Source of the DNA: a virus
Direction: 5' to 3' (one strand)
Length of the DNA stretch: 33,593 nucleotides
Virus record (IMG/VR): IMGVR_UViG_3300010883_022729
Location: 1-33,593 of that record
Below are positions 5,572 to 30,001 of this stretch, in pieces (position 1 is the first letter of the stretch; every line of letters starts with the position of its first letter). The notes below the pieces were generated by a model. That model saw nothing but the letters and a program-made list of their open reading frames with translations. It was not told where the DNA came from and made no database searches. The position numbers and the translations under genes are program-made.

Positions 5572-7418
5572 TAGTTGATCCTTCCAATTATGTCATCATT
5601 TGGATGTCTAAATTCAAACATTCCGCCTCGAGGAGGAAAAAGCATACCCCTGTCTAGATTTCTTGCAGGACTATAAGTTTCAATTGAATATTGCCTATTT
5701 TCAAATGTACTTGATCTATTTAGAAATCTTATACTCCCTACAGATAACACGCCTCTTGTGTTTAAAATGATATTTTCTATATCACCTATCATGATAGGCT
5801 GATCAATTTGTATATTTTCAATCTTAAAATAACTCTTAAGGCTAGCATTAATTGACTGTATTACAATTTCAGGGTTTGATGACATGTCAATGTTAACCGA
5901 ATACTTTAATGCAAGATTAATTACCTGTACATCTAATACATCTACAGCGTCTGATATCAGTCTATACTGGCTTAAGTATACACCTAAATTTTCTTTCAAA
6001 ACGTCTGGAGAAATAATTAATTTTCCTGTACTGTCGCGCGAGACAATATGAAGTTGAGCTGATAATGGATTTGATGGGTTATCTCTAACTGAAACCCTAA
6101 AAACTCTTCCGAAGTTAGAAGGCATACTATAAACTCTTGCAATCAAATCCTCTCTAGTTACTACTCTACTTTGTGATGTTTTTGCAAAAATTGCTGTACT
6201 TCTCAATTCATCTAGCGTGGGTTCGTTTTCACCACCTGATGCCGGCATTCTATTAGTAACAGACATTGTACTTCTTATTTCAGATACTTGCGAAGAAGGT
6301 ACAGCTGAATTAAATTTTGTGATTAATGTTCTTATAGTCTGAATTCCGCCTGCAGGTACGTTGTTATCTAGACCACCACCGTGCCTATAAGTTATTGTAA
6401 GTGTAGTATTTCTAGGACTCATACCAAGCGTATTTGTGTCCAACAAACTATTTGGATCGATTGATATTTTTGTAAATGTCTTTCTATCACCAAACAGTTT
6501 TATTGCATGATCTGATGGATCTGGTATGATATCTTCATCATACTTATCTTCATTTCCGGCTCCGAATCTAAGTGTTGTTGCACCCGTTGACCTTGATCTA
6601 AATTTTATAAATCTTTTTGGGGCAGGTATGACCCTAATTCTTTGTTGAACTAGCTCGGAATCCTGTCGAGTATTTTCCATTCTTTCATATATTGTATCCT
6701 GTGTTAGCGATTCTACTTCATAATAATTATCTTCAGAAGAATCAATGACTGTTACTATTTCTGTGACATCTGTCTTTTCGAGATTTATTAATCTAAAGGG
6801 AGTGTACACATCAGGAATAGATATCGTTTCAATAAATGTTTTAGCACTAGTACATCTACCCGTCACTGTCATTGTCATTTCAGTAACATTATTATTGCTA
6901 TCTGTAGCTAATATTTCAATGTCTGCTGTATAATCACCCAATTCATTTTTCTTTGAAAAGTCTATCGGGTCTAGAAGTGTGAATTCAACACCACTCTGGC
7001 TTACAAATAATGTCTCGCTTAGTATTATTGGTATATAAAGTGGATCTGGCATAAAATCACCACCTGACAATATTGCAGGAACTTTAATTCTTACAAGAAC
7101 TTCGACAACAGAGGGTGATGGCCCAGATATCTCAATCCCTGTCTGTCTTATGTGTGCTTCAATATTTGATTCTTCAACAGCAGTCTCAATTGACAATTCA
7201 TTAAACTGATGATCCATGTAAAATGACATGCTGTCGCCTACGTAAGCAGCAACATCAAGAAGCATCCCGGCCAAAGAACCTTCAGTAAAATCAACAATCT
7301 TATCACCGTAGTGTTGTCTAGAAAATGATTCTAGCTGACTTCTAAAAGATTGAAAGTCTTTTTGAAGATATGATACATCTTTATGCTTTTTAACTTCTTT
7401 TTTAATATTCCTTGCCAT
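5571..7418 (-). CDS. Baseplate wedge subunit, gp6-type (baseplate J-like)
   Basis: The 615-residue product has the layout of T4 gp6/baseplate J proteins. The N-terminus reads YLQKDFQSFRSQLESFSRQHYGD followed by FTEGSLAGMLLDVAAYVGDS, the segment that positions the wedge helix. The C-terminal half has the J-like region: VVTREDLIARVYSMPS, then GRVFRVSVRDNP, and the repeated beta-alpha unit ending IENIILNTRGVLSVG. In T4, gp6 dimers form the inner ring of the baseplate and drive the change from hexagon to star. The length is close to T4 gp6 (about 660). The start ATG has AGAGG upstream. It lies 20 bases after the gp25 gene, the order expected in a wedge operon. Confidence 0.9.
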   Translation of the reverse strand: MARNIKKEVKKHKDVSYLQKDFQSFRSQLESFSRQHYGDKIVDFTEGSLAGMLLDVAAYVGDSMSFYMDHQFNELSIETAVEESNIEAHIRQTGIEISGPSPSVVEVLVRIKVPAILSGGDFMPDPLYIPIILSETLFVSQSGVEFTLLDPIDFSKKNELGDYTADIEILATDSNNNVTEMTMTVTGRCTSAKTFIETISIPDVYTPFRLINLEKTDVTEIVTVIDSSEDNYYEVESLTQDTIYERMENTRQDSELVQQRIRVIPAPKRFIKFRSRSTGATTLRFGAGNEDKYDEDIIPDPSDHAIKLFGDRKTFTKISIDPNSLLDTNTLGMSPRNTTLTITYRHGGGLDNNVPAGGIQTIRTLITKFNSAVPSSQVSEIRSTMSVTNRMPASGGENEPTLDELRSTAIFAKTSQSRVVTREDLIARVYSMPSNFGRVFRVSVRDNPSNPLSAQLHIVSRDSTGKLIISPDVLKENLGVYLSQYRLISDAVDVLDVQVINLALKYSVNIDMSSNPEIVIQSINASLKSYFKIENIQIDQPIMIGDIENIILNTRGVLSVGSIRFLNRSSTFENRQYSIETYSPARNLDRGMLFPPRGGMFEFRHPNDDIIGRIN

Positions 7419-7438
7419 CTATGCCTCTTTTAATTTTC

Positions 7439-7975
7439 CTACCCAGCAATAGTAAGTTCTACCTCTATTGCTTGATCTGTTGTTTGCAATCTAGATATGT
7501 CGTACTTGACAAACACAATAATTCCAAATAGTCCTGAAGAATTGGGTGGTTGACCTTGTGTTGTCGATTTTATATCTTTTGTATTTGCATCCATACCTAA
7601 TATTCTTATATCTATGTTTTTAATTTCAATGATCGGTAGATATTTATTTGCTGTTACAGTTATGCGACGTATTACTTCTGATTCAATAGATTCTAAGCTT
7701 GAAGCATCGTATAAGAGCGATTTTAAATTTGCGCCTAGGCCTGCGTTGCACAATCTTTCACCAAAATTAGTAAGCAAAAGATTTCTAAAGTTATCCTTTA
7801 TTTGAGCTGCAGCATTAAAATGCATTTTATAAAAATTTTCGCCTGCTTTACCTGCTGAAAATTCAAGTGGCGTCTTAATACCAATTGGCGGGTTTACAGT
7901 AGAAACGATCTCAGTTAACTCTCTAGCAGTTACCAATCTTCCCGAACTCTTAAAACTAAATCGCTTTCTTGCCAT
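7439..7975 (-). CDS. Baseplate wedge subunit, gp25-type (GPW/gp25 fold)
   Basis: This 178-residue protein has the gp25 family pattern. There is a GIKTPLEFS segment near residue 33, helix AQIKDNFRNLLLTNFGER (about 56-73) with the family's 'LLxTxxGER' signature, NLKSLLYD near 84, and a C-terminal strand VKYDISRLQTTDQ. In T4 and in related contractile systems (TssE), gp25 joins the wedge to the sheath and helps start sheath polymerisation. The protein is longer than T4 gp25 (132 residues), with about 17 extra N-terminal residues and an insertion before the last strands. The ATG has AAGGA seven bases upstream. A promoter-like pair sits in the 80-base gap before it. Confidence 0.88.
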   Translation of the reverse strand: MARKRFSFKSSGRLVTARELTEIVSTVNPPIGIKTPLEFSAGKAGENFYKMHFNAAAQIKDNFRNLLLTNFGERLCNAGLGANLKSLLYDASSLESIESEVIRRITVTANKYLPIIEIKNIDIRILGMDANTKDIKSTTQGQPPNSSGLFGIIVFVKYDISRLQTTDQAIEVELTIAG

Positions 7976-16425: not shown

Positions 16426-17292
16426 TTATTTCTTAATTTTTGATTTTTTAGTCAACGCCCCTGGAATATCATACCAGTCTAAATCTTTTCTTACTTGTTT
16501 GTTTTTCTCCCAAGCCCCTTTCATAACGTTAGGTGAAATACCCAATTCTTCTGCTTTTTTAATCATTGCATTTAAGTCTTTAGGAAAACACTTTCCGCCA
16601 AAACCAAAATCACCATCATGGCCGGGGACATCAATGTGAGAATTACCAATACGCCCATCAGTTATAAAACCTTCTACTGCTTCGTCCCAATTGCCACCAA
16701 TTGCCTCACAAATCTGATGCATCTCATTCATAAACGAAACCTTAGTAGCAAAGAAACAGTTTGCCATATACTTGATCAACTGTGCTGTACCGAAGTCTGT
16801 TTTAATTATCTTTGTGTAAGGGAAGCGAATCCTATACAAATCTTCAACTTTTTTCAAAGATATTTCATCATTACCACCCAAGACAATCCGGGAAGTATTA
16901 ATAAAATCTAGTCTTGCTTTTCGCTCAGTTAGAAACTCAGGATTAAAAACGAAATTAATTTCTGGATATTTTGCAGACAATTGCTCAGTTGTTCCTGGCA
17001 CAACAGTAGATTTGATCACCAACACTTGATTTTTACGCCTATGTGTGAGAGGACAGTTGTTCATTATTTCATCAACAACACCTTCAACGATTGAAAGATC
17101 ACATTCTCCCGACTCAAACATCGGTGTTGGAACACAAATAAATACAACGTCTGAGTTTAAAATTAATTCATTTAAATTGTGCGTAGATCGTTTTGGGTCT
17201 TTGTCATAAATCATTATGTCATCAGTATGCAGTATAAAACCGTGCATAATTGCTGAACCTACAAAGCCATTACCTATAATGCCTATATTCAT
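16426..17292 (-). CDS. UDP-glucose/GDP-mannose-type 6-dehydrogenase, short form lacking the C-terminal domain
   Basis: The 288-residue protein has the N-terminal NAD domain (GNGFVG, 7-12), CVPTPM at 53-58, FNPEFL near 116-121, the central-helix lysine K174 with N178 (LIKYMAN), and FGGKCFPKD with nucleophile Cys235. These are the residues for twofold oxidation of a UDP-sugar to a uronic acid. Full enzymes are about 390-450 residues and end with a UDP-binding Rossmann domain. Here the chain stops about 50 residues after Cys235, in a basic tail, with no sign of a downstream continuation. The ATG has AAGGA upstream. It lies between the SIS isomerase and the epimerase genes. Confidence 0.85.
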   Translation of the reverse strand: MNIGIIGNGFVGSAIMHGFILHTDDIMIYDKDPKRSTHNLNELILNSDVVFICVPTPMFESGECDLSIVEGVVDEIMNNCPLTHRRKNQVLVIKSTVVPGTTEQLSAKYPEINFVFNPEFLTERKARLDFINTSRIVLGGNDEISLKKVEDLYRIRFPYTKIIKTDFGTAQLIKYMANCFFATKVSFMNEMHQICEAIGGNWDEAVEGFITDGRIGNSHIDVPGHDGDFGFGGKCFPKDLNAMIKKAEELGISPNVMKGAWEKNKQVRKDLDWYDIPGALTKKSKIKK

Positions 17293-17312: not shown

Positions 17313-17903
17313 TTACTCTGGGCTTAAGCGTCTTAGATAAGAGTCACCCATTCTTTCTTTTTCTTTAGTTATCGACGGACAATGGCTTCCGGCTCTGTGA
17401 ATTAAATCGTAAAACATCATCATGCACATTACTTCTACTGTATGGAAATATTCACATTTAAAAAACATTTCATCTATTTCTTGTTTTAATATTTGTGATT
17501 TTTGACCGCTAACCATGAAAGTATTAAGTTTTCTTTCATCAGACCAATGTAATGCGCTAATTATATTAGAAGAATTACCAGAACAAGAAAGACCAATTAC
17601 TAGACATTCCTCAGGATTTTCAACATATGTCATTGTTTCAAGCCAACGAACAAAAACTTGATCGAAGCCGTGATCATTTGAATTGGATGTTATAAAGCCT
17701 ACACTATCAAATGAATATACCACTTTGTTCTTAATTAGTCTAGACATGTCTGTTGCCATATGTCCTGCAACAAAATGAAGACCACCATTACCAATTACAA
17801 ATATTTTTTTTGCCTTATTGATTTTATTAACTAGTAACTCATACTCATGTGAGGTAAAAGCTTTTCTACATTTCTCTTCTATACTTTCAAAGTCTATTAT
17901 CAT
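17313..17903 (-). CDS. SIS-domain sugar-phosphate isomerase, GmhA-like
   Basis: This 196-residue SIS protein has VIGNGGLHFVAGHMATDMSR (36-55) in place of the GNGGS...HFAEEL region of phosphoheptose isomerase, and GLSCSGNSSNI (104-114) as the second phosphate loop. GmhA converts sedoheptulose 7-phosphate to D-glycero-D-manno-heptose 7-phosphate, which would feed the heptose kinase and nucleotidyltransferase encoded at 29216-30347. By eye, H48 matches the first GmhA metal/catalytic histidine, the next acid is Asp52 rather than Glu, and the C-terminal Gln/His pair seems to be replaced (HTVEVMCMMMFYD). So it is a diverged isomerase and the substrate is uncertain. AGGAAA precedes the ATG; the gene follows a 77-base gap. 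Confidence 0.75.
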   Translation of the reverse strand: MIIDFESIEEKCRKAFTSHEYELLVNKINKAKKIFVIGNGGLHFVAGHMATDMSRLIKNKVVYSFDSVGFITSNSNDHGFDQVFVRWLETMTYVENPEECLVIGLSCSGNSSNIISALHWSDERKLNTFMVSGQKSQILKQEIDEMFFKCEYFHTVEVMCMMMFYDLIHRAGSHCPSITKEKERMGDSYLRRLSPE

Positions 17904-17963
17904 TTTATATTTCCTATTTTATGATAACTACGCTAATTATTTTAACATGTTTTCACAGGGTTT

Positions 17964-17971
17964 AATTTATA
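17964..17971 (-). promoter_or_regulatory. Possible T4-type late promoter element (TATAAATT)
   Basis: The minus strand reads TATAAATT in the 77-base gap between the cyclase and SIS genes, one base from the T4 late consensus TATAAATA that gp55-type sigma factors recognise. It would give a leader of about 55 bases before the ATG at 17903. A TTGACA lies immediately upstream, but no -10 box is at the right distance. The region is very AT-rich, so a chance match is quite possible. Confidence 0.25.
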
Positions 17972-17980
17972 CATTGTCAA

Positions 17981-19006
17981 TTATTGTGAAAATATTTTAG
18001 CAAATATTAACTTTAGTTCTATTATACTTAAATTCTTTTTAATTGTATTACCTTTTATGTTACTTAATATACAATTAATCGTTTCTGAATCTGTATTTTT
18101 TTTATCTTTTTTTAGTATCTGAATAAATCGATCTTCGTTATACACATTTTTAAATATTTCAACATATCTTTTATTCTTTTTTAGAAATGAATTAATTACA
18201 GCTTCTATTTCTTTTGAATTATTCTCAAATAATGACTTGGTTATTTTGTTTGCAATATCAATACCTATCCCAACTGCGATTCCATGAGGTACCTCAAATC
18301 TAGTTATTGCTTCTATTGCATGGCCAAATGTATGACCATAGTTCATAATATTTCGTAACCCCTTGTCAAACTCATCAATCTCTATTATTTCTTTTTTTAT
18401 CTGCAATGCTAGCTTAATCAAGCTAGTTGGTACTTTATTATTATTAATACAGTCAATGAGAACATTGTAATCTATTCGATGTTTTGAATCTAAAAAAGCA
18501 ACTTTGATTATCTCACCAAGTCCTGATTGAATTTCTTCTTCTTTTAGTGTAGCTAGAAAATTAGTATTTATTTTTATTATTTTTGGAGGGTTAAAATTAC
18601 CAATTATATTTTTAAAATTGCATAAGTTTATAGACGTTTTTCCACCAATACAGCTGTCACATTGTGATAACAAAGTAGTTGGATAAAATACCCAATCTAT
18701 ACCTCTGTATAGAATACTAGATATAAAACCAGCTATATCTTGTGTTACACCACCACCAATTGCACATAAAGTATTTCCTCGCTTAATGCCGGCATTTATA
18801 AGTTTTTCAATATAATAAGCACACTTCAAGTATGACTTATTTTTTTCATTAGCAATAATACAAACTATTCTTTTTTCGTCTATGTGCTTAAAAGATTCAT
18901 AGTAAAGCTTATAAACAGCTTGATCGATTAAATAATAATCGAAATTTAAATCTAAAGCATCAGAAAACTTTACTTGATAATCTCTAATTGATGATTTTAT
19001 TTTCAT
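17981..19006 (-). CDS. 3-dehydroquinate-synthase-family sugar-phosphate cyclase
   Basis: This 341-residue protein has the full cyclase pattern: GGGVTQDIAGF (84-94) binds NAD, YPTTLLSQCDSCIGGKT (108-124) and NIIGNFNPP follow, and the metal ligands are Glu165 (GLGEIIK), His225 (NYGHTFGHAIE) and His241 (VPHGIAVGIG). Family members turn DAHP into dehydroquinate, or cyclise sedoheptulose 7-phosphate (valiolone synthases), or glucose 6-phosphate (deoxy-scyllo-inosose synthase). Position between an aminotransferase (23-base overlap) and a SIS enzyme that may share sedoheptulose 7-phosphate argues against a housekeeping shikimate role and for a cyclitol or unusual sugar. The active site looks intact. 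Which ketose phosphate it uses cannot be decided by eye. Confidence 0.85.
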   Translation of the reverse strand: MKIKSSIRDYQVKFSDALDLNFDYYLIDQAVYKLYYESFKHIDEKRIVCIIANEKNKSYLKCAYYIEKLINAGIKRGNTLCAIGGGVTQDIAGFISSILYRGIDWVFYPTTLLSQCDSCIGGKTSINLCNFKNIIGNFNPPKIIKINTNFLATLKEEEIQSGLGEIIKVAFLDSKHRIDYNVLIDCINNNKVPTSLIKLALQIKKEIIEIDEFDKGLRNIMNYGHTFGHAIEAITRFEVPHGIAVGIGIDIANKITKSLFENNSKEIEAVINSFLKKNKRYVEIFKNVYNEDRFIQILKKDKKNTDSETINCILSNIKGNTIKKNLSIIELKLIFAKIFSQ

Positions 19007-20138
19007 TATTTGTTATCTCAATGAAGTTGTTTATAACTGAAATTATATAATCAATTTCTTTCTTTTTTAAACCATTGTACATCGGTAAGCATACATTATG
19101 ATCTTTCATATAGTAAGAATTGTCCAGCACATCGCCTGTTATGCATCCCATTCGCTTGCTTATATCCTGCTTATCACAAGTATAAGAATATGCTGGTGGC
19201 GGGAGCTCTATTCCCATTTTTGATGTGAATAATGTCAAATCATTTCGAACTTTTAAGTTTTTAGTTAATAGAAAATATTTATAGTAACCTGAATTCGTAT
19301 TTTTGGGAATAACAAACTGTCGTATATCATCACTGAATATTATACGTTTATCGTAGTTATTTGCAATCAATGTCCTTTCGTTTATTATCATGTCAGCATT
19401 TTTTGTATGTAACAAAGCAAGTACTGCTGTTATCTCTGACATCTTTGAATTGTTACCTATTTCAAAAGATTCGTAATTGTTTATAGTCCTATCCAAGCCT
19501 ATTGATCTTATTTTTTTGATTTTATTAGCTAGTTCATTAGAAGCTGTTGTTATAACACCACCCTCTCCTGACGTCAATACTTTTGAGTGGTGGAAAGAAA
19601 AACACGCGGCATGACCAAAGTTACCTGCATATAAGTTTTTGTATTTTGCGCCATGCGCACATGCTGCATCTTCTATTAAAAACAAACTATTCTTATCACA
19701 ATATGCTCTAATATCTTCAATTTCATTTGTAATGATACCACCTACATGAACAATCATAATTGCTTTTGTATTTGGTTGTATTGCTTTTTTTATACTTTCA
19801 AGAGTTAAAGATAATGTTGTCTTTGATATATCTGCATATACTGGTGTTGCCATACAATTATATATCGACATAACAGAAGCTATAAATGTGTATGATGGAA
19901 CAATCACGCTGCAGTCTTTTACATCAATTGCTCTAAGTATGCATTCTAATCCTGCTGTACAACTACTGACTGCAATAGAATTTTTAGAATTGTTAAACTC
20001 ACACCAAAGATTTTCAAATTTACTAACATTTGGACCGCCATCAGTTAAATACCCTAACTTTAATGACTTTTCAATTTCATCTTTTACAAAGCGGATGTCG
20101 TTTTTGCTATATACTAGCTTATATTTTTTAATTTTCAT
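18984..20138 (-). CDS. DegT/DnrJ/EryC1-type PLP sugar aminotransferase
   Basis: The product has 384 residues from ATG 20138, chosen because GGATT lies upstream and the longer start at 20189 would run 47 bases into the previous gene. It has the fold-type I layout: VIVPSYTFIASVMSIYN (78-94), IEDAACAHGAKY (155-166) with Asp157 for the PLP nitrogen, and SFHHSKVLTSGEGG (181-194) with Lys186 as the Schiff-base lysine. These enzymes place an amino group on a keto sugar or ketocyclitol using glutamate or glutamine. Its partners are the upstream CMP-sugar synthetase-like gene and the downstream cyclase, with which it overlaps. Intact and of normal length. Confidence 0.9.
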   Translation of the reverse strand: MKIKKYKLVYSKNDIRFVKDEIEKSLKLGYLTDGGPNVSKFENLWCEFNNSKNSIAVSSCTAGLECILRAIDVKDCSVIVPSYTFIASVMSIYNCMATPVYADISKTTLSLTLESIKKAIQPNTKAIMIVHVGGIITNEIEDIRAYCDKNSLFLIEDAACAHGAKYKNLYAGNFGHAACFSFHHSKVLTSGEGGVITTASNELANKIKKIRSIGLDRTINNYESFEIGNNSKMSEITAVLALLHTKNADMIINERTLIANNYDKRIIFSDDIRQFVIPKNTNSGYYKYFLLTKNLKVRNDLTLFTSKMGIELPPPAYSYTCDKQDISKRMGCITGDVLDNSYYMKDHNVCLPMYNGLKKKEIDYIISVINNFIEITNNENKIIN

Positions 20139-20142
20139 AAAA

Positions 20143-20793
20143 TTATAATCCAATGTTAGCAACAATAGACTGTGCATATAAAAAATCACTATTATTATCG
20201 ATATCTACGCATTCTAGCTCCGGGACACTAAATGTAATAAAGTCTTTTGTAATTCTAGAACTTTCATTTTTAAATGCGCCACAGTTAAATACATAAAATC
20301 CTGCTTCTCTCATTAGTGGGTTCATATATTGAGTACCTACTAACTTATCTTTGAAATGATTGACCGGTTTGTCGTTAATCCAGAATCTATCATAAACCGG
20401 GTATAACCCAAAGCAAGATGTTTTACCCTTACTATTGTTTAAAATGTCAAAAGATTTTAAAATTGTGTCTTTTTTTAAAAAAGGAGTTGTAACAAAAAAC
20501 TGTCCAATGATATCATCATCATCACAGATAAGCTTATCTAGTGCATGATTAATCAAATCATTTCCTGAAGTTTCTGGTGAGTTTAGCATTACGGGTCTTT
20601 CAATTGTATTAAATCCATTCTTTGCAGCTATTTCTAGTATTTTTTCATCTGAGCTATCTATAAAAACTTCAATATTGCATTGTTTGACTGTATTAAAAAT
20701 ATACTGAAACAACGGCTTTTCGCCTAACATCATTGTGTTCTTGCCGGGTAGCCTTTGATTGTTTGTTTTTATAGGTATAATGATTTTATTCAT
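20143..20793 (-). CDS. CMP-sugar synthetase-like nucleotidyltransferase (NeuA/KdsB type)
   Basis: This 216-residue protein opens with IPIKTNNQRLPGKN (6-19), the CTP-binding loop of acylneuraminate and Kdo cytidylyltransferases, followed by LGEKPLFQYIFN, FIDSSDEKIL and QFFVTTPFLKKDTI. The usual IPARxxSxRLPxKN has Thr-Asn-Asn in place of Gly-Ser-Lys, still with the Arg and Lys. Such enzymes make CMP-activated nonulosonic acids or 3-deoxy-octulosonic acids; some relatives use other NTPs. ATGA overlaps the stop of the upstream gene, and the aminotransferase follows within 5 bases, so the two are coupled. Substrate not determined. Confidence 0.8.
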   Translation of the reverse strand: MNKIIIPIKTNNQRLPGKNTMMLGEKPLFQYIFNTVKQCNIEVFIDSSDEKILEIAAKNGFNTIERPVMLNSPETSGNDLINHALDKLICDDDDIIGQFFVTTPFLKKDTILKSFDILNNSKGKTSCFGLYPVYDRFWINDKPVNHFKDKLVGTQYMNPLMREAGFYVFNCGAFKNESSRITKDFITFSVPELECVDIDNNSDFLYAQSIVANIGL

Positions 20794-21839
20794 AGCGAGT
20801 CTGTATAGTTTAAAATTTTCTTAGAAGTGTTTATCTTGTCATTATAAACAAAATCGTTTGATTTTTCAATTTTATTTTTCAATAATTCCCAACCATCTTC
20901 TCTTTCCATGTCGATAATATTTTCAGAGTAATCTTTTGCAAAATAATTATCTATTTTATGCTTTCTTACACCATTAGTTGTAAGTATGATACAGTTTGTA
21001 TTCATATGCATAATATCGAAAAATGCAAAACTATCATTTATTACTATGCAACAGTCTGAAACATATGCATGTTCACATAGACTTGACGGAAATCTCAAGT
21101 CTTTTTCTATTATTACATCAGGTTTGTTCTTCATCAATGATAGTGGACTGCACCAGTTTTCTACTGGATAACCTTTTTCTCTTTTTTTCCAAATTATTTC
21201 AAAATCATTATCATGTAAAAACTGGACTAGTTTATCACAAAATTTAGCAATAGCACGTGATGATGAAATATTTTTTTTGTCCATCCTTAAATAAGTTTCA
21301 GGTATAAAACATTTCTTTTTTTTACCTTTTGTCTTTGTAGCATACTTTAAGTGATCTAGTCTTACATTGCCCAAATAAGCATTTGGATAGCTATGATAAC
21401 CATATTTTATGTCTTCTTTCTGTTTTAATATAGAAACAGTGGGTGTTACTTTTGGATTAGTTAAATGTTTAACCTCGTCCCACCAAGCAAAATGTATAAC
21501 TTTTACAGTGCTTTCAATAAAAGGAAACCAAGTTGGGTATTTTGGTTTAATTTCTTGAATAAAGATTGTTGACGGATTATTGTTATCATAGTCTTTTAAA
21601 TATAAATCATTATCTTCTTTTTTATAAAAATCAATATTAGGAATCATGCAATTTAACTCTTTGCATTTGTTTATAAAAAAGTTTATTATTTCTTCTTTTG
21701 TATAGTGATACAATTGGCGCTTTTTGTAGAAACAGTCAAAAAAACAAACCCAGCATTTTCTATTTTGCTTTAAAGCTTCGAATAAAACAGGCAACATATC
21801 TTGAAAATTTGCTGTGCCAAATATGTAAAAACCTGTCAT
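20790..21839 (-). CDS. Putative GT-B-type glycosyl- or glycerophosphotransferase
   Basis: The product has 349 residues. The N-terminus reads GFYIFGTANFQDMLPVLFEA, a Rossmann-like start with a following helix. The second half ends in SSLCEHAYVSDCCIVINDSF followed by AFFDIMHMNTNCIIL, which resembles the nucleotide-binding half of CDP-glycerol glycerophosphotransferases and related GT-B enzymes (a '..aD..I.D.S...e....' pattern). No signal peptide or membrane segment. AAAGGG precedes the ATG, after a 73-base gap. It overlaps the CMP-transferase gene by 4 bases. That coupling makes it a candidate to use the CMP-activated product. The family call is weak. Confidence 0.55.
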   Translation of the reverse strand: MTGFYIFGTANFQDMLPVLFEALKQNRKCWVCFFDCFYKKRQLYHYTKEEIINFFINKCKELNCMIPNIDFYKKEDNDLYLKDYDNNNPSTIFIQEIKPKYPTWFPFIESTVKVIHFAWWDEVKHLTNPKVTPTVSILKQKEDIKYGYHSYPNAYLGNVRLDHLKYATKTKGKKKKCFIPETYLRMDKKNISSSRAIAKFCDKLVQFLHDNDFEIIWKKREKGYPVENWCSPLSLMKNKPDVIIEKDLRFPSSLCEHAYVSDCCIVINDSFAFFDIMHMNTNCIILTTNGVRKHKIDNYFAKDYSENIIDMEREDGWELLKNKIEKSNDFVYNDKINTSKKILNYTDSL

Positions 21840-24270: not shown

Positions 24271-24867
24271 TTAGTACTTCTCGCTCAAATATTCCAATAT
24301 TGGTTTTTTAATCATATCTGATTCTTTTTGATAAACAATATTTATATTTTCTTCTTTAAATTTACTTTCATCTAAGTATTTTTTTCCGCCTATACCAGAA
24401 AGATATTGATTACATCCTTCAACTTTAGAACATATATCTATCAATCTATTGTCACCTTTAAGAAAAGTTTTTTCATCTATCATAAATGATGTTTCTATAT
24501 TTAAAAAATTTTTTATTTTTTTGATAATCTTTATGTTTGTATTGCACAAGCTTGCTGAAAAACAGTTATCAAATTCACTAAGTAGATCGTGACTTATTTT
24601 TTCGTTTCTCTTTAAATTTGTTTTTATTTTTTTCCAATTTTCAATTGGGTTGATGTAACATTTTTCATTTATTGGGATTAAGCCTCTTTTTGAACTCATT
24701 GTATACCATTTTTTATTAATATCAAATCTATTTTGGTATCCATTTTTTTCAAATTGACAATGAGTTAAAAAAACAAAAACATTAGCAGCTTCAATTTTTT
24801 GAAAAAACGGATACCATGGGAAAAACGTAGGCTGATGTATTGTCACTATACTATTTTTTTGATTCAA
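24271..24867 (-). CDS. WbqC-family protein
   Basis: The product has 198 residues from TTG 24867, preceded by GGAG at the right distance; a longer ATG start at 24936 would overlap the deacetylase gene by 53 bases. The family signature is clear: VTIHQPTFFPWYPFFQKI, then FVFLTHCQFEKNGYQNRF, and the later YLSGIGGKKYLDES. WbqC-like proteins occur in O-antigen and other surface-glycan gene sets. Their chemistry is not well established; proposals involve attaching or transferring amino or acyl groups on sugars. Here it follows the PIG-L deacetylase, which would expose an amine, so a role in re-decorating that amine is a reasonable guess. Confidence 0.75.
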   Translation of the reverse strand: MNQKNSIVTIHQPTFFPWYPFFQKIEAANVFVFLTHCQFEKNGYQNRFDINKKWYTMSSKRGLIPINEKCYINPIENWKKIKTNLKRNEKISHDLLSEFDNCFSASLCNTNIKIIKKIKNFLNIETSFMIDEKTFLKGDNRLIDICSKVEGCNQYLSGIGGKKYLDESKFKEENINIVYQKESDMIKKPILEYLSEKY

Positions 24868-24883
24868 TATTATGCTCCAGTAT

Positions 24884-25552
24884 TTATAAGTTTGGTATTT
24901 TACCAATTGAAAAGTATCCATTGTCAATATTTGCAATTACCTTGCAAACTTCAAAACATTCAGCGTACTTTACGCCAATTTGATTGCCTCTAAATCGTGA
25001 TAAAGAATATACTGCTTCAATGTCAGACTCACTTAAGAATTTATAAGACTTTATACTTTTGATTTTATCTTCTATTGTTTCTGTAATATCAACGTATACA
25101 TGACTTTTAAAACTATCAGGTGATATCCCACCTAGTGTTAATTGTTCATACATTAAAACTGAAATATTGTTTTTTCTTGCCGCGGCAAATGTAGCTTCTG
25201 CTACTGCTTTATGATCTTGATGTGTATCATGATCCCAATGAGTAAAAATAACGTCTGGTTGATATTCTACTATTATATCATCAATTAATTTGACTAATTT
25301 TCTATCAAATTTAAACTCATACGGGTTCATATCTAAAACTTCTATCTCACAATTCAATCTTTTAGCAGCTTCTTCTTGATAAGATAATCTTCTTTTTTTT
25401 GCCCCTTGCATTATTTTGCCGTCTCTTGATTCTTGTGGTATTATGCATACTAAAAGTTTGACGTCATTACCTGAATTTGTAAACTTTGAAATACTACCAC
25501 CCATTGATACTTCAGGATCGTCTGCATGTGCACCTATTACTAATAATTTCAT
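24884..25552 (-). CDS. PIG-L/LmbE-type N-acetyl-sugar deacetylase
   Basis: This 222-residue protein has AHADDPEVSMGGS (8-20), the zinc/catalytic motif of the family (usually AHPDDE), and HWDHDTHQDHKAVAEAT (105-121) with His111, Asp113 and His114 giving the second metal half. Family members remove acetyl groups from GlcNAc in GlcNAc-inositol, GlcNAc-malate or antibiotic precursors. The Pro of AHPDD is Ala and a Pro is inserted before Glu14, but the His9-x-Asp11-Asp12 core is kept. AAGGAAA precedes the ATG. In this island the likely substrate is an N-acetylated nucleotide sugar or glycan. Length is normal. Confidence 0.88.
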   Translation of the reverse strand: MKLLVIGAHADDPEVSMGGSISKFTNSGNDVKLLVCIIPQESRDGKIMQGAKKRRLSYQEEAAKRLNCEIEVLDMNPYEFKFDRKLVKLIDDIIVEYQPDVIFTHWDHDTHQDHKAVAEATFAAARKNNISVLMYEQLTLGGISPDSFKSHVYVDITETIEDKIKSIKSYKFLSESDIEAVYSLSRFRGNQIGVKYAECFEVCKVIANIDNGYFSIGKIPNL

Positions 25553-25572
25553 TATTTATTTCCTTAAGATTA

Positions 25573-26487
25573 TTAAATGCTTGCAAATTGCAATAAAGGT
25601 TTGTATATTTTTTCTATTTTTGATACATGAAAGTTTCTTGATAATTGAAATGATTGTTCACCTAGATCTTTGTATAACTCAATATTATTTTTCAATATGT
25701 TTATTTTATCAAACATTGATTGTTTTGAATTGCACAAACACCAAAGCAAATCGTGATAATCGTATCTTACTATTTCTTCTACATAAGCATCGTAGTGAGT
25801 AAAAAGTGTAGGTATGCCAAAAGAAAAGAAGTTCATTAGCTTTGTTGCTGGTTTTGTTGAAGTTATTGTGCCTCCGAATCTTTGTTTTTCGTGTGTATAG
25901 TGTATACAGCCTAGATCTAAAGGCATTGTCATATCTGCATTATTGCCTAATCGTGGGGTTGGCATTCCTGAAAACCAAGACATATTATTTTCATTACAGT
26001 ACTGATAAAAATCATTGGTATCAGTAAATGTTGATGGTGTGCCCACATATCCTATTTTTTTTATTTCATTGCCTAGTTGTCGTCTATACTGCAATTCATA
26101 ATCTTTACATGTATTTGTTATAACATGCGGTATTCTAAAAAACAAACCTTTAAAACTAGATATATTTTTCATATGTTGAATATGAACATTTGATCCGGCA
26201 ATAATTGTATCAATGTTTTCTTGATGTTCTAGCCAGTGTTTCTTAGAGTCAACTACATCAAAAACAACTCTTCCTCCACGTTCTTTTATTTTTTTAGATA
26301 AACATAACATGTCGTACTTTACAAAAACAACAGTTTTTTCTTCATTGATATCAGCTACATTTAAGTCTCTATCGAGAACTAAAGATACTTTATATCCTTT
26401 CTTATGAAGAACTTTTGAAATAAATGTACCCCTCATGAAAGCAGAACCGCTGTCAGCGTTTGTGATAACAAAAATCAATTCTTTCAT
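25573..26487 (-). CDS. Putative GT-B-type glycosyltransferase
   Basis: The product has 304 residues. FVITNADSGSAFMRGTFISK opens a Rossmann half with a small-residue loop, and GYKVSLVLDRD follows. The second half starts with IKKIGYVGTPSTFTDTNDFY and has a donor-site-like region, ATKLMNFFSFGIPTLFTHYD followed by AYVEEIV, similar to the 'K..ey.a.G.Pvi' segment of GT-B enzymes. The classical E-x7-E is not clear. The ATG has a strong AAGGAG. A short tandem 9-base repeat sits in the 40-base leader. It lies between the radical SAM gene and the deacetylase gene. Confidence 0.6.
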   Translation of the reverse strand: MKELIFVITNADSGSAFMRGTFISKVLHKKGYKVSLVLDRDLNVADINEEKTVVFVKYDMLCLSKKIKERGGRVVFDVVDSKKHWLEHQENIDTIIAGSNVHIQHMKNISSFKGLFFRIPHVITNTCKDYELQYRRQLGNEIKKIGYVGTPSTFTDTNDFYQYCNENNMSWFSGMPTPRLGNNADMTMPLDLGCIHYTHEKQRFGGTITSTKPATKLMNFFSFGIPTLFTHYDAYVEEIVRYDYHDLLWCLCNSKQSMFDKINILKNNIELYKDLGEQSFQLSRNFHVSKIEKIYKPLLQFASI

Positions 26488-26499
26488 TTTACTCCTTAG

Positions 26500-26517
26500 T
26501 GCGTTTCCTGCGTTTCA
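26500..26517 (-). repeat. Tandem 9-base repeat in the leader of the glycosyltransferase gene at 25573-26487
   Basis: On the minus strand TGAAACGCA is followed directly by GGAAACGCA (8 of 9 identical), just upstream of the AAGGAG site. It may be an operator or only a local duplication; nothing else in the window repeats it that I noticed. Confidence 0.4.
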
Positions 26518-26527
26518 TAAAACAATA

Positions 26528-27583
26528 TTATAAAAAATCATTATGATTTACATTTTTAATTTTATCTAAAAATTCATTTAAGTTATCTCCGACACATAAG
26601 TGTGGACATTTTTTAACGTCTAAATCTTTTAAAGCTTTTCTTCTTTTTTCGCCGTGCCAGATATTAAAAAAACTTTCATTCTTAATGTTGCCAATTAATC
26701 CTTCTTGCTTACCTGTAAGCGAGCAGCAAATGTAAACATCGCCAATAGCAGTTATTGTTGTTGCTTTAAATGATTGTGCATGACATGAGTTATAACTTCT
26801 ACACGTGCCCTTACCTGATAGAATTTTTTCATATTTACCTTCGTCTATTACAACTTTAAAGTCTTTATCTTCGTAAGATTTTGCATTTTCAAAAAGCTTG
26901 TTTAGTTCTTCAGTATCTACACTTTTATAGTCATAAAGAAAGCCGAAACTAGGTCTTAGCTGCGCATAATCAACTCCTGACTGTTTACATACTTCTATAA
27001 ACTTGTGCAAATTTCTATCCATTTCTGGATACTGATTTGTTATATAGCCGGCGCCTATAGTTGTATTTAAGTGATGATGTTTTTTAATATCTGACAACAT
27101 TTTTAAATTTTTTATTGTTAAATCAAAATTTGCAGTTTTACCATGTGTCTTCTTATGAGTATCTGTGTCGTATGCGTCAAGTGAAACCCTTATCCACTCA
27201 AACATAGGAAGTAATTCTGCCATTGGCCATTTATGAAATCTTGATCCATTGCAAATCAATCCTATTTTAAAACCTTTTTGATGAGTAAGTCTTATAATCT
27301 TATCAAACTGCTTGTGTGTTGTCGGTTCTCCGCCACCCGTGTAGTTAATTCCTTTAACACCGCATGCGACTAATGCATCTAGTAAGTGATCAAATAATTC
27401 GAATTTCAAACTATTGTTATCATTAAAGATCAGTTCATAATCAATACACCCGGGACAATCATGATTGCATACGTTTGTCAAATCAATCTTTACTGTTACC
27501 GGTCCATTAGTGTCACCACGCTTATACCACTCTAAATATTTTTCTGGATGATTTAACACTTTATTTGAATTTAGAAAACTCAT
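26528..27583 (-). CDS. Radical SAM enzyme with C-terminal SPASM/twitch-type cysteine domain
   Basis: The product has 351 residues. Cys39, Cys43 and Cys46 (VCNHDCPGC) form the CxxxCxxC site for the 4Fe-4S cluster that cleaves S-adenosylmethionine. GGGEPT (83-88) is the SAM-amine loop. The C-terminus carries Cys261, 267, 286, 287, 326 and 330, the layout of a SPASM or twitch domain holding auxiliary Fe-S clusters. SPASM enzymes include peptide-maturases, sulfatase activators and sugar/cyclitol dehydrogenases such as BtrN. Among glycan genes, oxidation, epimerisation or deoxygenation of a sugar is the likeliest role. There is no short precursor peptide beside it. TTAAGGA precedes the ATG; it overlaps the upstream gene by 23 bases. 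Confidence 0.85.
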   Translation of the reverse strand: MSFLNSNKVLNHPEKYLEWYKRGDTNGPVTVKIDLTNVCNHDCPGCIDYELIFNDNNSLKFELFDHLLDALVACGVKGINYTGGGEPTTHKQFDKIIRLTHQKGFKIGLICNGSRFHKWPMAELLPMFEWIRVSLDAYDTDTHKKTHGKTANFDLTIKNLKMLSDIKKHHHLNTTIGAGYITNQYPEMDRNLHKFIEVCKQSGVDYAQLRPSFGFLYDYKSVDTEELNKLFENAKSYEDKDFKVVIDEGKYEKILSGKGTCRSYNSCHAQSFKATTITAIGDVYICCSLTGKQEGLIGNIKNESFFNIWHGEKRRKALKDLDVKKCPHLCVGDNLNEFLDKIKNVNHNDFL

Positions 27584-28564
27584 ATATTTCGTCCTTAAAG
27601 TATTTAACGATTACTTTTGGAGTCCAAAAATCGTTAAAGTATTCTTTGCTTTTATTTTGATGAAAATTTAAATTATTTATAATATTGGTAATTGATTGTT
27701 CCCAGTTGTTATTGTTGAAATCAACTTCAGGTAAGTGTTGTTTCCAAGTTAATCCATTGTCATAAGAGTTTTTTCTTAAAACGATGCAGTTACCTAAATA
27801 AGATTGATCTACTATTCTAGAAGTATATTCTCCAATTCCTGGCGGATTGATTATAATCTTACATTGAAACGATGCTTTAATATAATCAATGTATGAAGTG
27901 CCTAGGTGAAGCACTGTAAATTTTTTGCTTTTTAAAGTATCAATAATATTCTTTCTTGATTCATTTGGATAATGACCGGTATCGTTACTCTTGCCGGGTA
28001 AATTAAAGTTTTTATGATCAGACCAAGATATTGTGTTGTCGTGTTCGCTAGGCTTGGGATAATTATAAGCTTTTTCAGAAAAGAATATACCAATATCATA
28101 TTCTTTTTCTTGGTCACCGTACTCCTTTAAAATCTGTGCTCTTTTTCCGTAAACATGTTTATAGAAGTTATCATTAAATGACCATTTGAAAAATGGTATT
28201 ACTTTTCCATTATTTTCTTCTGCCATGATGGTTATTTTTTTTGACCATTTTTTTGAGTATGCAGATTTAAAAAACAAAAATGGCTTACCTTTTGAATCAA
28301 TGATTACTCTTTTGATTCTGCCACAATATTCATATATCTTTAAATCTTCATTGACGCCATCAGATGTATCTATGTATATATTTATTTTTTGGCCATAAAA
28401 ACATGCAGTTTTTTTTATGATCGATTGATTACTGTATGTACTGATTAATCCAGAATTTAAAAGTTCTTCATGAATAAAGCTTAATCTTTTTATATCGTAG
28501 AATGCGCTAAACAACTATTACCTCCGCCAGATTTAAGTATATCTTTTATAAATATTTTTTTCAA
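27561..28564 (-). CDS. Probable GT-B glycosyltransferase with an apparent 1-base frameshift near its N-terminus
   Basis: A main frame of 317 residues runs from 28514 but has stops right before its TTG. Another frame starts at TTG 28562-28564, behind a good GGGAG site, and reads MKKIFIKDILKSGGGNSC before a stop soon after. Joining the two at TGTTTAGC (28507-28514), as if one T were missing, gives a continuous N-terminus ...SGGGNSC-FSAFYDIKRL, a Rossmann strand and glycine loop like that of the GT4 at 22590-23501. The C-terminal half contains KFTVLHLGTSYIDYIKASFQ and PPGIGEYTSRIVDQSYLGNC, compatible with a glycosyl-receptor domain. Whether the break is real, a sequencing error, or recoded is open. 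Functional family assigned with moderate confidence. Confidence 0.6.
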
Positions 28565-28565
28565 C

Positions 28566-28931
28566 TTAGTCTCCCTTTTCTATTCTAATGCTGTCACTGT
28601 CAAAATGCGTTGTTGAAAATTCAAACAACTCTGTGTCTTCCAACGCTTCCATTCTATGTCTCAACCCTCTATAAACATGAAAATTATCACCTTTTGTCAA
28701 TATTACTTCATTTGCTAACCTGATATCATCATTGTCTGAATAATAGACCTTTACTTTTCCGGACTGTATATAAAAAACTTCATCTTTCAGCTTGTGATAA
28801 TGCCAAGAGCATTTCTTACCCTTTACAAAATATAAAAGTTTTCCGCAATAATCTTCACAATTGACTATCCATTTTTCAAAACCCCAACCCTTTGGTACAA
28901 ATTTAATTTCTTGTGTTGAAAAAGTCTTCAT
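28566..28931 (-). CDS. Cupin-fold protein, mannose-6-phosphate-isomerase-like
   Basis: The product has 121 residues from ATG 28931 (AGGAAT upstream; a GTG one codon earlier is less likely). A single double-stranded beta helix is visible: GWGFEKWIVNCEDYCGKLLY (15-34), SWHYHKLKDEVFYIQSGKV (42-60) with His44, His46 and Glu51 as metal ligands, and RGLRHRMEAL (88-97) with His92. It resembles the C-terminal cupin of type II mannose-6-phosphate isomerase/GDP-mannose pyrophosphorylase. Stand-alone forms are common in phages and may isomerise or epimerise a sugar or only bind it. It overlaps the HAD gene by 29 bases, so it is part of the heptose block. Confidence 0.75.
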   Translation of the reverse strand: MKTFSTQEIKFVPKGWGFEKWIVNCEDYCGKLLYFVKGKKCSWHYHKLKDEVFYIQSGKVKVYYSDNDDIRLANEVILTKGDNFHVYRGLRHRMEALEDTELFEFSTTHFDSDSIRIEKGD

Positions 28932-29235
28932 CACTTATTCCTTTGTCATCAATGTATATGTCCCCAGATGGTTTGCCTAGATATAATTCATGATATTTTA
29001 TACCCCACAATGATAATTGTTCAATAGTGAAATTATAAAATTCATCATATGCTCGACGATGATCGTTGTTATGTCTTCCCATACCTCTTGCTGTACAAAT
29101 TATAATCTTATTGCCTGTATTGAATAACTTGTTTACCTTATCTATTCTTGCTAATTTTGGCTTTGAATTGTTGTAATTACCATCTTTTGTTAGTGTGCAC
29201 AGTGTACCGTCCAAATCAAATACGTAAGTTTTCAT
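28903..29235 (-). CDS. Small HAD-superfamily phosphatase
   Basis: This 110-residue HAD protein has DLDGT (7-11) with the nucleophile and acid/base aspartates, IICTARGM (45-52) with Thr48 as motif II, Lys88 (GKPS) as motif III, and IDDKG (95-99) as motif IV. There is no cap domain; such short forms are seen in capsule-biosynthesis phosphatases. It overlaps the heptose-kinase gene by 20 bases and the cupin gene by 29. In the ADP-heptose pathway a phosphatase (GmhB) must remove the C7 phosphate between kinase and nucleotidyltransferase, and this gene is in the right place. It lacks the length and zinc-binding loop of GmhB, so that role is inference. Confidence 0.8.
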   Translation of the reverse strand: MKTYVFDLDGTLCTLTKDGNYNNSKPKLARIDKVNKLFNTGNKIIICTARGMGRHNNDHRRAYDEFYNFTIEQLSLWGIKYHELYLGKPSGDIYIDDKGISDEDFFNTRN

Positions 29236-30001
29236 ATTCTTCCCGCTTAACTGTGTAACAACCTAGTTTCGTAACGCTTAAAGCAGCGCATGCATTTGCT
29301 GTTTTGATCGATCGATCCATGTCTTTAGTTTCCAACCAACGAGATACAAGTGTTGCTAAGAATACATCTCCAGCGCCGCAAACATCATGTACTTCTACTC
29401 TTTTTGCTGGATATAGCCTGCCTTGATACTCACAACCTTTTGAGCCTAACGTAGTAATTATATCATTTGTTTGCTTCAAAAATAATGCTTCATTTCTTTC
29501 ACTTTCATTTAGCTTAATTGTTGTATTTTCAAAGCTATCCAGGTTTTTCTTTTTTGTATCAGCAAATATCTTAGCATTAGTAAATTTATTACAGATATTA
29601 ATAATTAATTGATCTGTAATAAACCCCTTATTGTAGTCAGACAAAACAATAACATCATAATCATTATCAGGAATATCTTCAAACCTCAAGCTTTCAAATG
29701 AATTTTCTATATCATATCGCATTAATTGATAATTAGTCTTTCTATCAATAAATCTAATTTTTTTAATATCTGATATACTATTTTGACATGTCACTATTTT
29801 AGATTTAGAGAGTAGTGAAATTAAATTATTGTATACATTTCCAGACATTCCATGTTTTGATACCTTACTTGTTTTTTTAAGGATAGGCACAGGTGCTTCT
29901 GGACTGATTCTATTTACTTCACCGAATACATACACATCTTGACATAATTCACCTATTAGCAATATTTTGTATTGTTTTTGTTGTTGAATAGCCCTTAACA
30001 T
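29216..30001 (-). CDS. Heptose-7-phosphate kinase, HldA-type (HldE N-terminal domain as separate gene)
   Basis: This 261-residue PfkB-family kinase carries the HldE-specific segment VNRISPEAPVPILK (about 29-42), then VLSDYNKG near residue 123 and the catalytic DVCGAGD with Asp212 as base. HldA/HldE domain I phosphorylates D-glycero-D-manno-heptose 7-phosphate at C1. The kinase half of E. coli HldE is about 318 residues, so this one is about 55 shorter, mainly in the lid region (GGAAN is GMSGN here). Its ATG overlaps the nucleotidyltransferase gene by 53 bases; no later start keeps the first strand (KILLIGE). GAGGTAAG lies upstream, rather far off. Confidence 0.85.
   Translation of the reverse strand: MLRAIQQQKQYKILLIGELCQDVYVFGEVNRISPEAPVPILKKTSKVSKHGMSGNVYNNLISLLSKSKIVTCQNSISDIKKIRFIDRKTNYQLMRYDIENSFESLRFEDIPDNDYDVIVLSDYNKGFITDQLIINICNKFTNAKIFADTKKKNLDSFENTTIKLNESERNEALFLKQTNDIITTLGSKGCEYQGRLYPAKRVEVHDVCGAGDVFLATLVSRWLETKDMDRSIKTANACAALSVTKLGCYTVKREEYENLRI

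What the first reader, a model, noticed from the sequence alone, without database searches (positions are those of the whole stretch)
17313..20793. Phage operon joining a sugar-phosphate cyclase, an aminotransferase, a CMP-transferase and a SIS isomerase
Seen: a cyclase of the dehydroquinate synthase family with all three metal ligands, overlapping a DegT aminotransferase gene, itself 5 bases from a NeuA/KdsB-like gene, and followed by a GmhA-like gene. Known: valiolone-type cyclases and GmhA both use sedoheptulose 7-phosphate; DegT enzymes aminate keto-cyclitols; and in Shewanella an iron-ADH/DegT/KdsB trio makes CMP-8-amino-Kdo. Inferred: the phage makes a nucleotide-activated amino-cyclitol or an amino-keto sugar. 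I know of no described phage pathway of this kind.
Basis: partly seen in the sequence, partly recalled or inferred. Interest (0 to 1): 0.78.

Follow-up and report, generated by a model that had tools for sequence, protein, structure and literature searches.

The report
Phage cassette for an amino surface sugar
A group of uncultivated phages carries a small, repeatedly reshuffled gene cassette that pairs a ring-forming relative of a shikimate-pathway enzyme with a sugar aminotransferase, a CMP-sugar-type activating enzyme and an isomerase-like protein, so these viruses probably make their own unusual aminated (possibly carbocyclic) surface sugar.

Summary
The four genes are real and intact in a phage contig. 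The cyclase is not a true AroB: it belongs to a sister clade (NCBIfam TIGR04425, 'AroB-related putative cyclizing phospholyase') of surface-glycan clusters, and most bacteria with such a copy also hold a separate AroB. It is not valiolone-type either: all DHQ-synthase pocket residues are kept (one E-to-D), including the four that differ in valiolone or deoxy-inosose synthases. The SIS protein lacks two GmhA catalytic residues (E65D, H180Y), so the sedoheptulose-7-phosphate inference is not supported. The order CMP-transferase/DegT/cyclase/SIS occurs in seven viral contigs, twice with one inserted gene. It has been kept although cyclase and SIS were exchanged (L123: NeuA and DegT ~50% identical to the window's; cyclase 83% and SIS 69% to another cassette type). 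In 59 of 70 related loci an SDR gene sits directly before the cyclase; in exactly these seven DegT sits there instead. Best reading: a phage glycan cassette in which the cyclase makes a keto-carbocycle, DegT aminates it, and the product is CMP-activated. Substrate, product and the CMP step remain inferred.

The parts
20790..21839 (-). Putative GT-B glycosyltransferase, first gene of the run; overlaps the CMP-transferase start by 4 bases; candidate user of the CMP-activated product
   Evidence: No Pfam match. AlphaFold model pLDDT 82.5; best Foldseek hit by E-value is the Kdo transferase WaaA 2xci (1.7e-6, TM ~0.48), followed by UDP-sugar 2-epimerases and GT-B enzymes. Conserved next to the cassette in L002, L004, L005.
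20143..20793 (-). CMP-transferase of the NeuA/KdsB/PseF fold (216 aa)
   Evidence: CTP_transf_3 55 bits; PseF/KdsB models far below cut-off; D197-I-D199 motif invariant in its lineage. In the viral collection all 6 relatives lie in this same cassette.
18984..20138 (-). DegT/DnrJ/EryC1/StrS-type PLP aminotransferase; conserved start ATG at 20138 (GTG at 20189 is spurious)
   Evidence: PF01041 267 bits; start and K203 (numbered from the GTG start) conserved in all homologues. Occupies the place directly before the cyclase where relatives carry an SDR.
17981..19006 (-). Sugar-phosphate cyclase of the TIGR04425 (AroB-related) clade
   Evidence: TIGR04425 366.7 bits against aroB 256 bits; outside AroB in the tree; DHQS pocket residues kept; model closest to DHQ synthases.
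17313..17903 (-). SIS-domain protein, distant from GmhA, with the GmhA residues E65 and H180 replaced (D, Y)
   Evidence: 62-69% identical relatives in many viral cassettes.

Best explanation
This is a phage-borne glycan-precursor cassette. Shown: the cyclase is a TIGR04425-type paralogue of AroB with the complete metal, NAD and phosphate machinery of DHQ synthase, and it is kept with a DegT aminotransferase, a NeuA/KdsB-type CMP-transferase and a SIS protein in seven viral contigs, through exchange of its parts. Inferred: the cyclase eliminates phosphate from a 7-phospho-2-ulose or 2-ulosonate (DAHP-like rather than sedoheptulose 7-phosphate) and closes a carbocycle bearing one ketone. In most relatives the SDR encoded directly before the cyclase acts on that ketone; here DegT transaminates it instead. 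The aminated product is then activated with CTP and transferred by the GT-B protein of 20790-21839, or another transferase of the phage, onto a phage or host surface glycan. Step by step: dedicated cyclase about 0.9; keto-carbocycle made for a glycan about 0.6; amination of that same molecule by DegT about 0.5; CMP activation of that same molecule about 0.35.
For: Separate clade from AroB; 11 of 14 bacterial genomes with a TIGR04425 copy hold a second gene above the aroB cut-off, one more just below it. Catalytic and pocket residues are complete in 51 of 51 aligned members except E260D and, in 13, K197H. The order NeuA-DegT-Cyc-SIS is in seven contigs. It is kept despite module exchange: L123 has NeuA/DegT 51/49% identical to the window's, but cyclase 83% and SIS 69% identical to L139, a different cassette type. 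SDR lies directly upstream of the cyclase in 59 of 70 loci, DegT in exactly the seven of this type; no SDR of that kind and no class-III aminotransferase is in these loci. Several sister cassettes carry a class-III aminotransferase plus a NeuA-cupin protein, so amination recurs with an unrelated PLP enzyme; GT29- and CST-I-type sialyltransferase-like genes lie beside them.
Against: No member of TIGR04425 has a known substrate that I could find. Cassettes of the TPP/kinase type use a related cyclase with no CMP-transferase or SIS, so the cyclase alone does not predict the final product. In L123 the exchange falls exactly between NeuA-DegT and Cyc-SIS, which would also fit two separate pathways side by side. 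CMP on a carbocycle cannot leave as from a normal CMP-sugar, so a carbocyclic CMP donor would need unusual transfer chemistry (chemical reasoning).
Confidence: 0.5

Rival explanations
1. Two tiled pathways: NeuA-DegT finish one CMP-activated amino sugar, and cyclase-SIS make a different precursor. They share only the operon, as is common in glycan cassettes.
For: In L123 the two halves come from different lineages. Cyclases of the TPP/kinase and HpcH types work without a CMP-transferase. UDP-sugar genes (UGDH, epimerase) sit in the same run.
Against: All 6 viral relatives of this CMP-transferase found in the collection lie in the cassette with the cyclase. DegT and the cyclase-linked SDR exclude each other at the same position.
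Confidence: 0.25
2. An extra 3-dehydroquinate synthase: the phage copy feeds the host shikimate pathway, or makes dehydroquinate as the amination substrate.
For: Fifteen pocket positions match DHQ synthase except E260D; the model is closest to DHQ synthases.
Against: 256 bits against the aroB cut-off of 305; outside the AroB clade; no other shikimate gene among those annotated in the window; most genomes with such copies already have AroB; K197H occurs in 13 of 51 relatives. The variant in which dehydroquinate is aminated is not excluded.
Confidence: 0.1
3. One reading: a valiolone-type cyclase on sedoheptulose 7-phosphate, with a GmhA-type isomerase acting on the same sugar.
For: Chemistry would give an aminocyclitol with a DegT enzyme; the DegT enzymes that act on 2-deoxy-scyllo-inosose are relatives, though not the closest.
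Against: K250, N268 and H275 are as in DHQ synthase, whereas EEVS/DDGS have M, D or A, and P. DOIS differs at R264 and N268. The SIS protein lacks E65 and H180.
Confidence: 0.08
4. An 8-amino-Kdo-like pathway: the cyclase homologue acts only as an oxidase on an ulosonate, DegT aminates, and the KdsB-like enzyme activates.
For: KdnA (5k8b) is among the better DegT structure matches. L003 and L122 add a gene that looks like KdsA and a second CMP-transferase. The GT-B model has WaaA as best hit.
Against: KdnB is an iron-containing ADH (PMC5125639); this protein matches only DHQ_synthase models and keeps the phosphate-binding residues that an ADH would not need.
Confidence: 0.07

Closest known systems
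TIGR04425, AroB-related putative sugar phosphate phospholyase (cyclizing)
   Same: Full-length match, same clade, same glycan-cluster setting; the family name already predicts a cyclizing phospholyase.
   Different: Scores 366.7 against a cut-off of 400. In bacterial members an SDR normally sits next to the cyclase; here DegT takes that place. Function of the family untested as far as I could find.
2-deoxystreptamine entry pathway (DOI synthase BtrC plus DegT aminotransferase BtrS)
   Same: A DHQ-synthase-fold cyclase paired with a DegT aminotransferase, as in keto-cyclitol amination.
   Different: Pocket positions R264 and N268 are DHQS-like, not G/E; about 20 other aminotransferase structures match the DegT protein better than BtrS does; CMP-transferase and SIS have no counterpart there.
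Shewanella 8-amino-Kdo genes (KdnA, KdnB, KdsB)
   Same: Set of oxidoreductase-fold protein, DegT aminotransferase and CMP-transferase.
   Different: KdnB is an iron-ADH; here a DHQS-type cyclase with a phosphate site, plus a SIS protein.
Pseudaminic/legionaminic and Kdo CMP-activation (PseF, NeuA, KdsB)
   Same: Same cytidylyltransferase fold with the D-x-D motif.
   Different: 72 bits against a PseF cut-off of 206; no PseB/PseC/PseI-type set in the window genes scanned.

Membership tests
TIGR04425 (AroB-related phospholyase) | Score above curated cut-off (400 bits) | tested here: not met
   366.7 bits, E 1e-109. Relatives L171-L174 and others do pass.
TIGR04425 (AroB-related phospholyase) | Same clade as members above cut-off, outside AroB | tested here: inconclusive
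   Groups with relatives L037 and others away from AroB (SH-aLRT 95); L037's copy passes the cut-off (L182). Three Actinomycetota/Rhizobium cyclases also fall at its base, and the tree is a quick search without bootstrap.
3-dehydroquinate synthase (AroB) | NCBIfam aroB score above 305 bits | tested here: not met
   256.2 bits.
3-dehydroquinate synthase (AroB) | Active-site residues of A. nidulans DHQS | tested here: met
   14 of 15 positions identical, E260 is D; D also occurs in 16 of 59 AroB sequences.
3-dehydroquinate synthase (AroB) | Makes dehydroquinate from DAHP | not testable with these tools
   Needs enzymology.
EEVS/DDGS (valiolone or gadusol type cyclases) | M at 250, D or A at 268, P at 275 (DHQS numbering) | tested here: not met
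   K, N, H.
2-deoxy-scyllo-inosose synthase | G at 264 and E at 268 (as in BtrC) | tested here: not met
   R and N.
KdnB / iron-containing ADH | PF00465 or PF13685 match | tested here: not met
   Only PF01761 and PF24621.
GmhA (sedoheptulose-7-phosphate isomerase) | NCBIfam gmhA score above 209 bits | tested here: not met
   65.6 bits.
GmhA (sedoheptulose-7-phosphate isomerase) | Catalytic E65 and H180 (E. coli numbering; their role from general knowledge) | tested here: not met
   D and Y, also in all other cassette SIS proteins of groups i and ii with that region, except the L012 fusion (D, C).
DegT aminotransferases | PF01041 match and PLP lysine | tested here: met
   267 bits; K203 in SFHHSKVLTSGEGG, invariant.
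NeuA/KdsB cytidylyltransferases | PF02348 match and C-terminal D-x-D | tested here: met
   55.3 bits; DID invariant. No equivalog cut-off is passed.

The most novel reading that the evidence does not exclude
The phages make a CMP-activated amino-carbocycle, i.e. a virus-encoded carbasugar or amino-quinate-like building block of a surface glycan. The cyclase keeps the DHQ-synthase pocket because its substrate carries a DAHP-like carboxylate, and the CMP-transferase reads the product as a carba-analogue of an ulosonic acid.
Probability: 0.25. Interest if true: 0.82.

Novelty: new variant of a known kind. Interest (0 to 1): 0.56.

Why it matters
TIGR04425 cyclases sit in surface-glycan clusters of many bacterial phyla with no product known to me. 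The phage cassettes are compact natural shuffles of the same pathway: which gene replaces which (DegT or SDR before the cyclase, class-III aminotransferase or DegT, cyclase-SIS modules exchanged) says what the cyclase must be making, so a four-enzyme reconstitution could assign the whole family. If the product is carbocyclic, viruses would be building carbasugars, possibly to disguise or decorate themselves or their host.

Tried and rejected
Scan of viral contigs with the whole cyclase gave nothing because poorly conserved peptides were chosen; the conserved block worked. INPHARED and PLSDB hold no close relative, only AroB-like proteins at about 30% identity, and no relative of this CMP-transferase in INPHARED. 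Literature searches for TIGR04425, for the gene set, and for phage dehydroquinate synthases gave nothing relevant; the primary papers on valiolone synthase pockets are not held, so pocket comparison was made from PDB sequence alignments. EEVS, DDGS and DOIS rows in the tree are partial (about 180 residues) and long-branched, so their placement was not used; the residue test was. Foldseek of the cyclase does not separate DHQS from DOIS or ValA (all TM about 0.8).
Full report
OBSERVATION. The window is a viral record of 33,593 bases with T4-type baseplate genes at 5571-7975 and a long run of glycan genes, all on the minus strand. The four genes of the finding are intact. Two details change. First, the DegT gene starts at the ATG at 20138, not at the GTG at 20189: every homologue starts there, which leaves 4 bases after the CMP-transferase gene. 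Second, the gene at 20790-21839 overlaps the CMP-transferase start by 4 bases and is kept next to it in L002, L004 and L005; its predicted model is a GT-B fold whose best hit by E-value is the Kdo transferase WaaA, at a weak TM-score of about 0.48.

THE CYCLASE IS NEITHER AROB NOR VALIOLONE-TYPE BY THE TESTS AVAILABLE. NCBIfam places it in TIGR04425 (366.7 bits; cut-off 400) rather than aroB (256; cut-off 305). Thirty-two viral and eighteen bacterial relatives were found; a model built from the viral set separates them from AroB with a gap (at least 329 bits against at most 294). In a tree of 85 proteins they fall together away from AroB (SH-aLRT 95), with three Actinomycetota/Rhizobium cyclases, two of them from related clusters, at the base (quick search, no bootstrap). 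Of 14 bacterial genomes with such a copy, 11 hold a separate gene above the aroB cut-off and one more just below; the last two show only a fragment or nothing, in assemblies that may be incomplete.

POCKET. I read residues at A. nidulans DHQS numbering from PDB-chain alignments and a joint alignment. R130, D146, K152, N162, E194, K197, K250, D257, E258, R264, N268, H271, H275 and H287 are all present in the window protein; E260 is D. The valiolone synthase ValA has M250, D268, P275; the gadusol-type enzyme has M250, D264, A268, P275; deoxy-scyllo-inosose synthase has G264 and E268. Across the family the pattern is not uniform: K197 is H in 13 of 51 members, and E260 is D in nearly all cassettes with a CMP-transferase or SIS gene but E in the TPP/kinase cassettes (exceptions include L010, L027 and L155 with E, and the TPP/HpcH group L013, L016, L020, L022 with D). 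This hints at more than one substrate.

THE SIS PROTEIN is a distant GmhA relative (65.6 bits, cut-off 209). Against E. coli GmhA (fetched), E65 is D and H180 is Y; bacterial relatives in these clusters keep the histidine. From general knowledge these residues are catalytic or metal-binding in GmhA. Changed residues do not show inactivity, but the reading 'GmhA on sedoheptulose 7-phosphate' is not supported.

CASSETTE ARCHITECTURE. I tabulated 70 cyclase loci. Types: (i) NeuA-DegT-Cyc-SIS in seven viral contigs: window, L002, L003, L004, L005, L122, L123, with a gene resembling radical SAM enzymes between Cyc and SIS in L004 and L005; (ii) viral SIS, SDR-Cyc and usually a NeuA-cupin fusion, several with a class-III aminotransferase and with GT29- or CST-I-like sialyltransferase genes nearby; (iii) bacterial and a few viral Gfo/Idh, 2-hydroxyacid dehydrogenase, SIS, SDR-Cyc; (iv) TPP enzyme, SDR-Cyc, and an FGGY-type or related kinase, viral with NeuB-like and in Lachnospiraceae and others; (v) HpcH aldolase, SDR-Cyc, TPP. 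SDR lies directly upstream of the cyclase in 59 of 70 loci; DegT lies there in exactly the seven type-i contigs; a profile search found no such SDR and no class-III aminotransferase in the type-i loci. In random draws, TIGR04425 passes its cut-off in 4 of 398 Pseudomonadota and 8 of 296 Bacteroidota genomes, and the gene beside it is again an SDR.

MODULE EXCHANGE WITH ORDER KEPT. L123 has NeuA and DegT 51 and 49% identical to the window's (28-29 and 26-28% to cassette ii members L009 and L139), but its cyclase is 83% identical to that of L139 (42% to the window) and its SIS 69% (38% to the window). In the tree the type-i cyclases fall in three places (window with L002-L005; L122; L123). The same gene order with parts from different lineages argues that the genes are selected together. 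All six viral relatives of this CMP-transferase found in the collection sit in the cassette. The exchange falling between NeuA-DegT and Cyc-SIS also leaves room for two tiled pathways, which I keep as the main rival.

MECHANISM. Established chemistry of the family: NAD oxidation, phosphate elimination, re-reduction, ring opening and aldol closure give a carbocycle with one ketone. Where most relatives encode an SDR directly before the cyclase, these phages encode a DegT transaminase, so the simplest reading is that the ketone is aminated here. CMP activation by the NeuA/KdsB-type enzyme and transfer by a sialyl- or Kdo-transferase-like GT follow by inference. A difficulty is that CMP on a true carbocycle is not a normal glycosyl donor; either transfer is unusual, or the CMP-sugar is a different molecule. 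I therefore give the whole chain 0.5 and the strict carbasugar version 0.25.

KNOWN OR NEW. The protein families are known; the cyclase family is named only as a putative enzyme. I found no paper describing such a phage cassette, in a library without most subscription journals. Novelty: new variant of a known kind.

Noticed in passing
window 16426-17292 (-): The UDP-glucose/GDP-mannose dehydrogenase-like protein is only 288 aa: NAD-binding and central domains, no C-terminal UDP-binding domain; the same short form (about 280 aa) is in L002, L004, L005.
   Followed up: partly
L012:13467-15530: A GDP-mannose dehydratase-like gene in a viral contig appears to be interrupted in frame by an intein-like stretch (about 300 aa starting CFDSNTPIT and ending VLAN).
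   Followed up: no
L012:10510-11742: SIS domain fused behind a domain of about 200 aa that looks (by eye only) like a GT29-type sialyltransferase; Pfam recognises only the SIS part.
   Followed up: no
L010:2102-2887, L128, L131, L139: GT29 sialyltransferase-like genes (27 bits, above Pfam cut-off, for the L010 gene) next to NeuA-cupin fusions in phages.
   Followed up: partly
L014-L033 and L047-L052: A second phage and bacterial cassette type: TPP enzyme of the acetolactate-synthase family, SDR, TIGR04425-type cyclase, FGGY-type or related kinase, in phages also a NeuB-like gene; product unknown.
   Followed up: partly
L048:6332-7960: HMGL-like aldolase gene with a C-terminal extension resembling the MptE/CST-I-like fold (by eye) beside the cyclase cluster in Lachnospiraceae.
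   Followed up: no
window 24271-30001 (-): Further unusual sugar genes: WbqC-like, PIG-L deacetylase, radical SAM protein, cysteine-dioxygenase-like cupin (also in L129, L155) and a protein matching only the C-terminal part of PfkB kinases.
   Followed up: no
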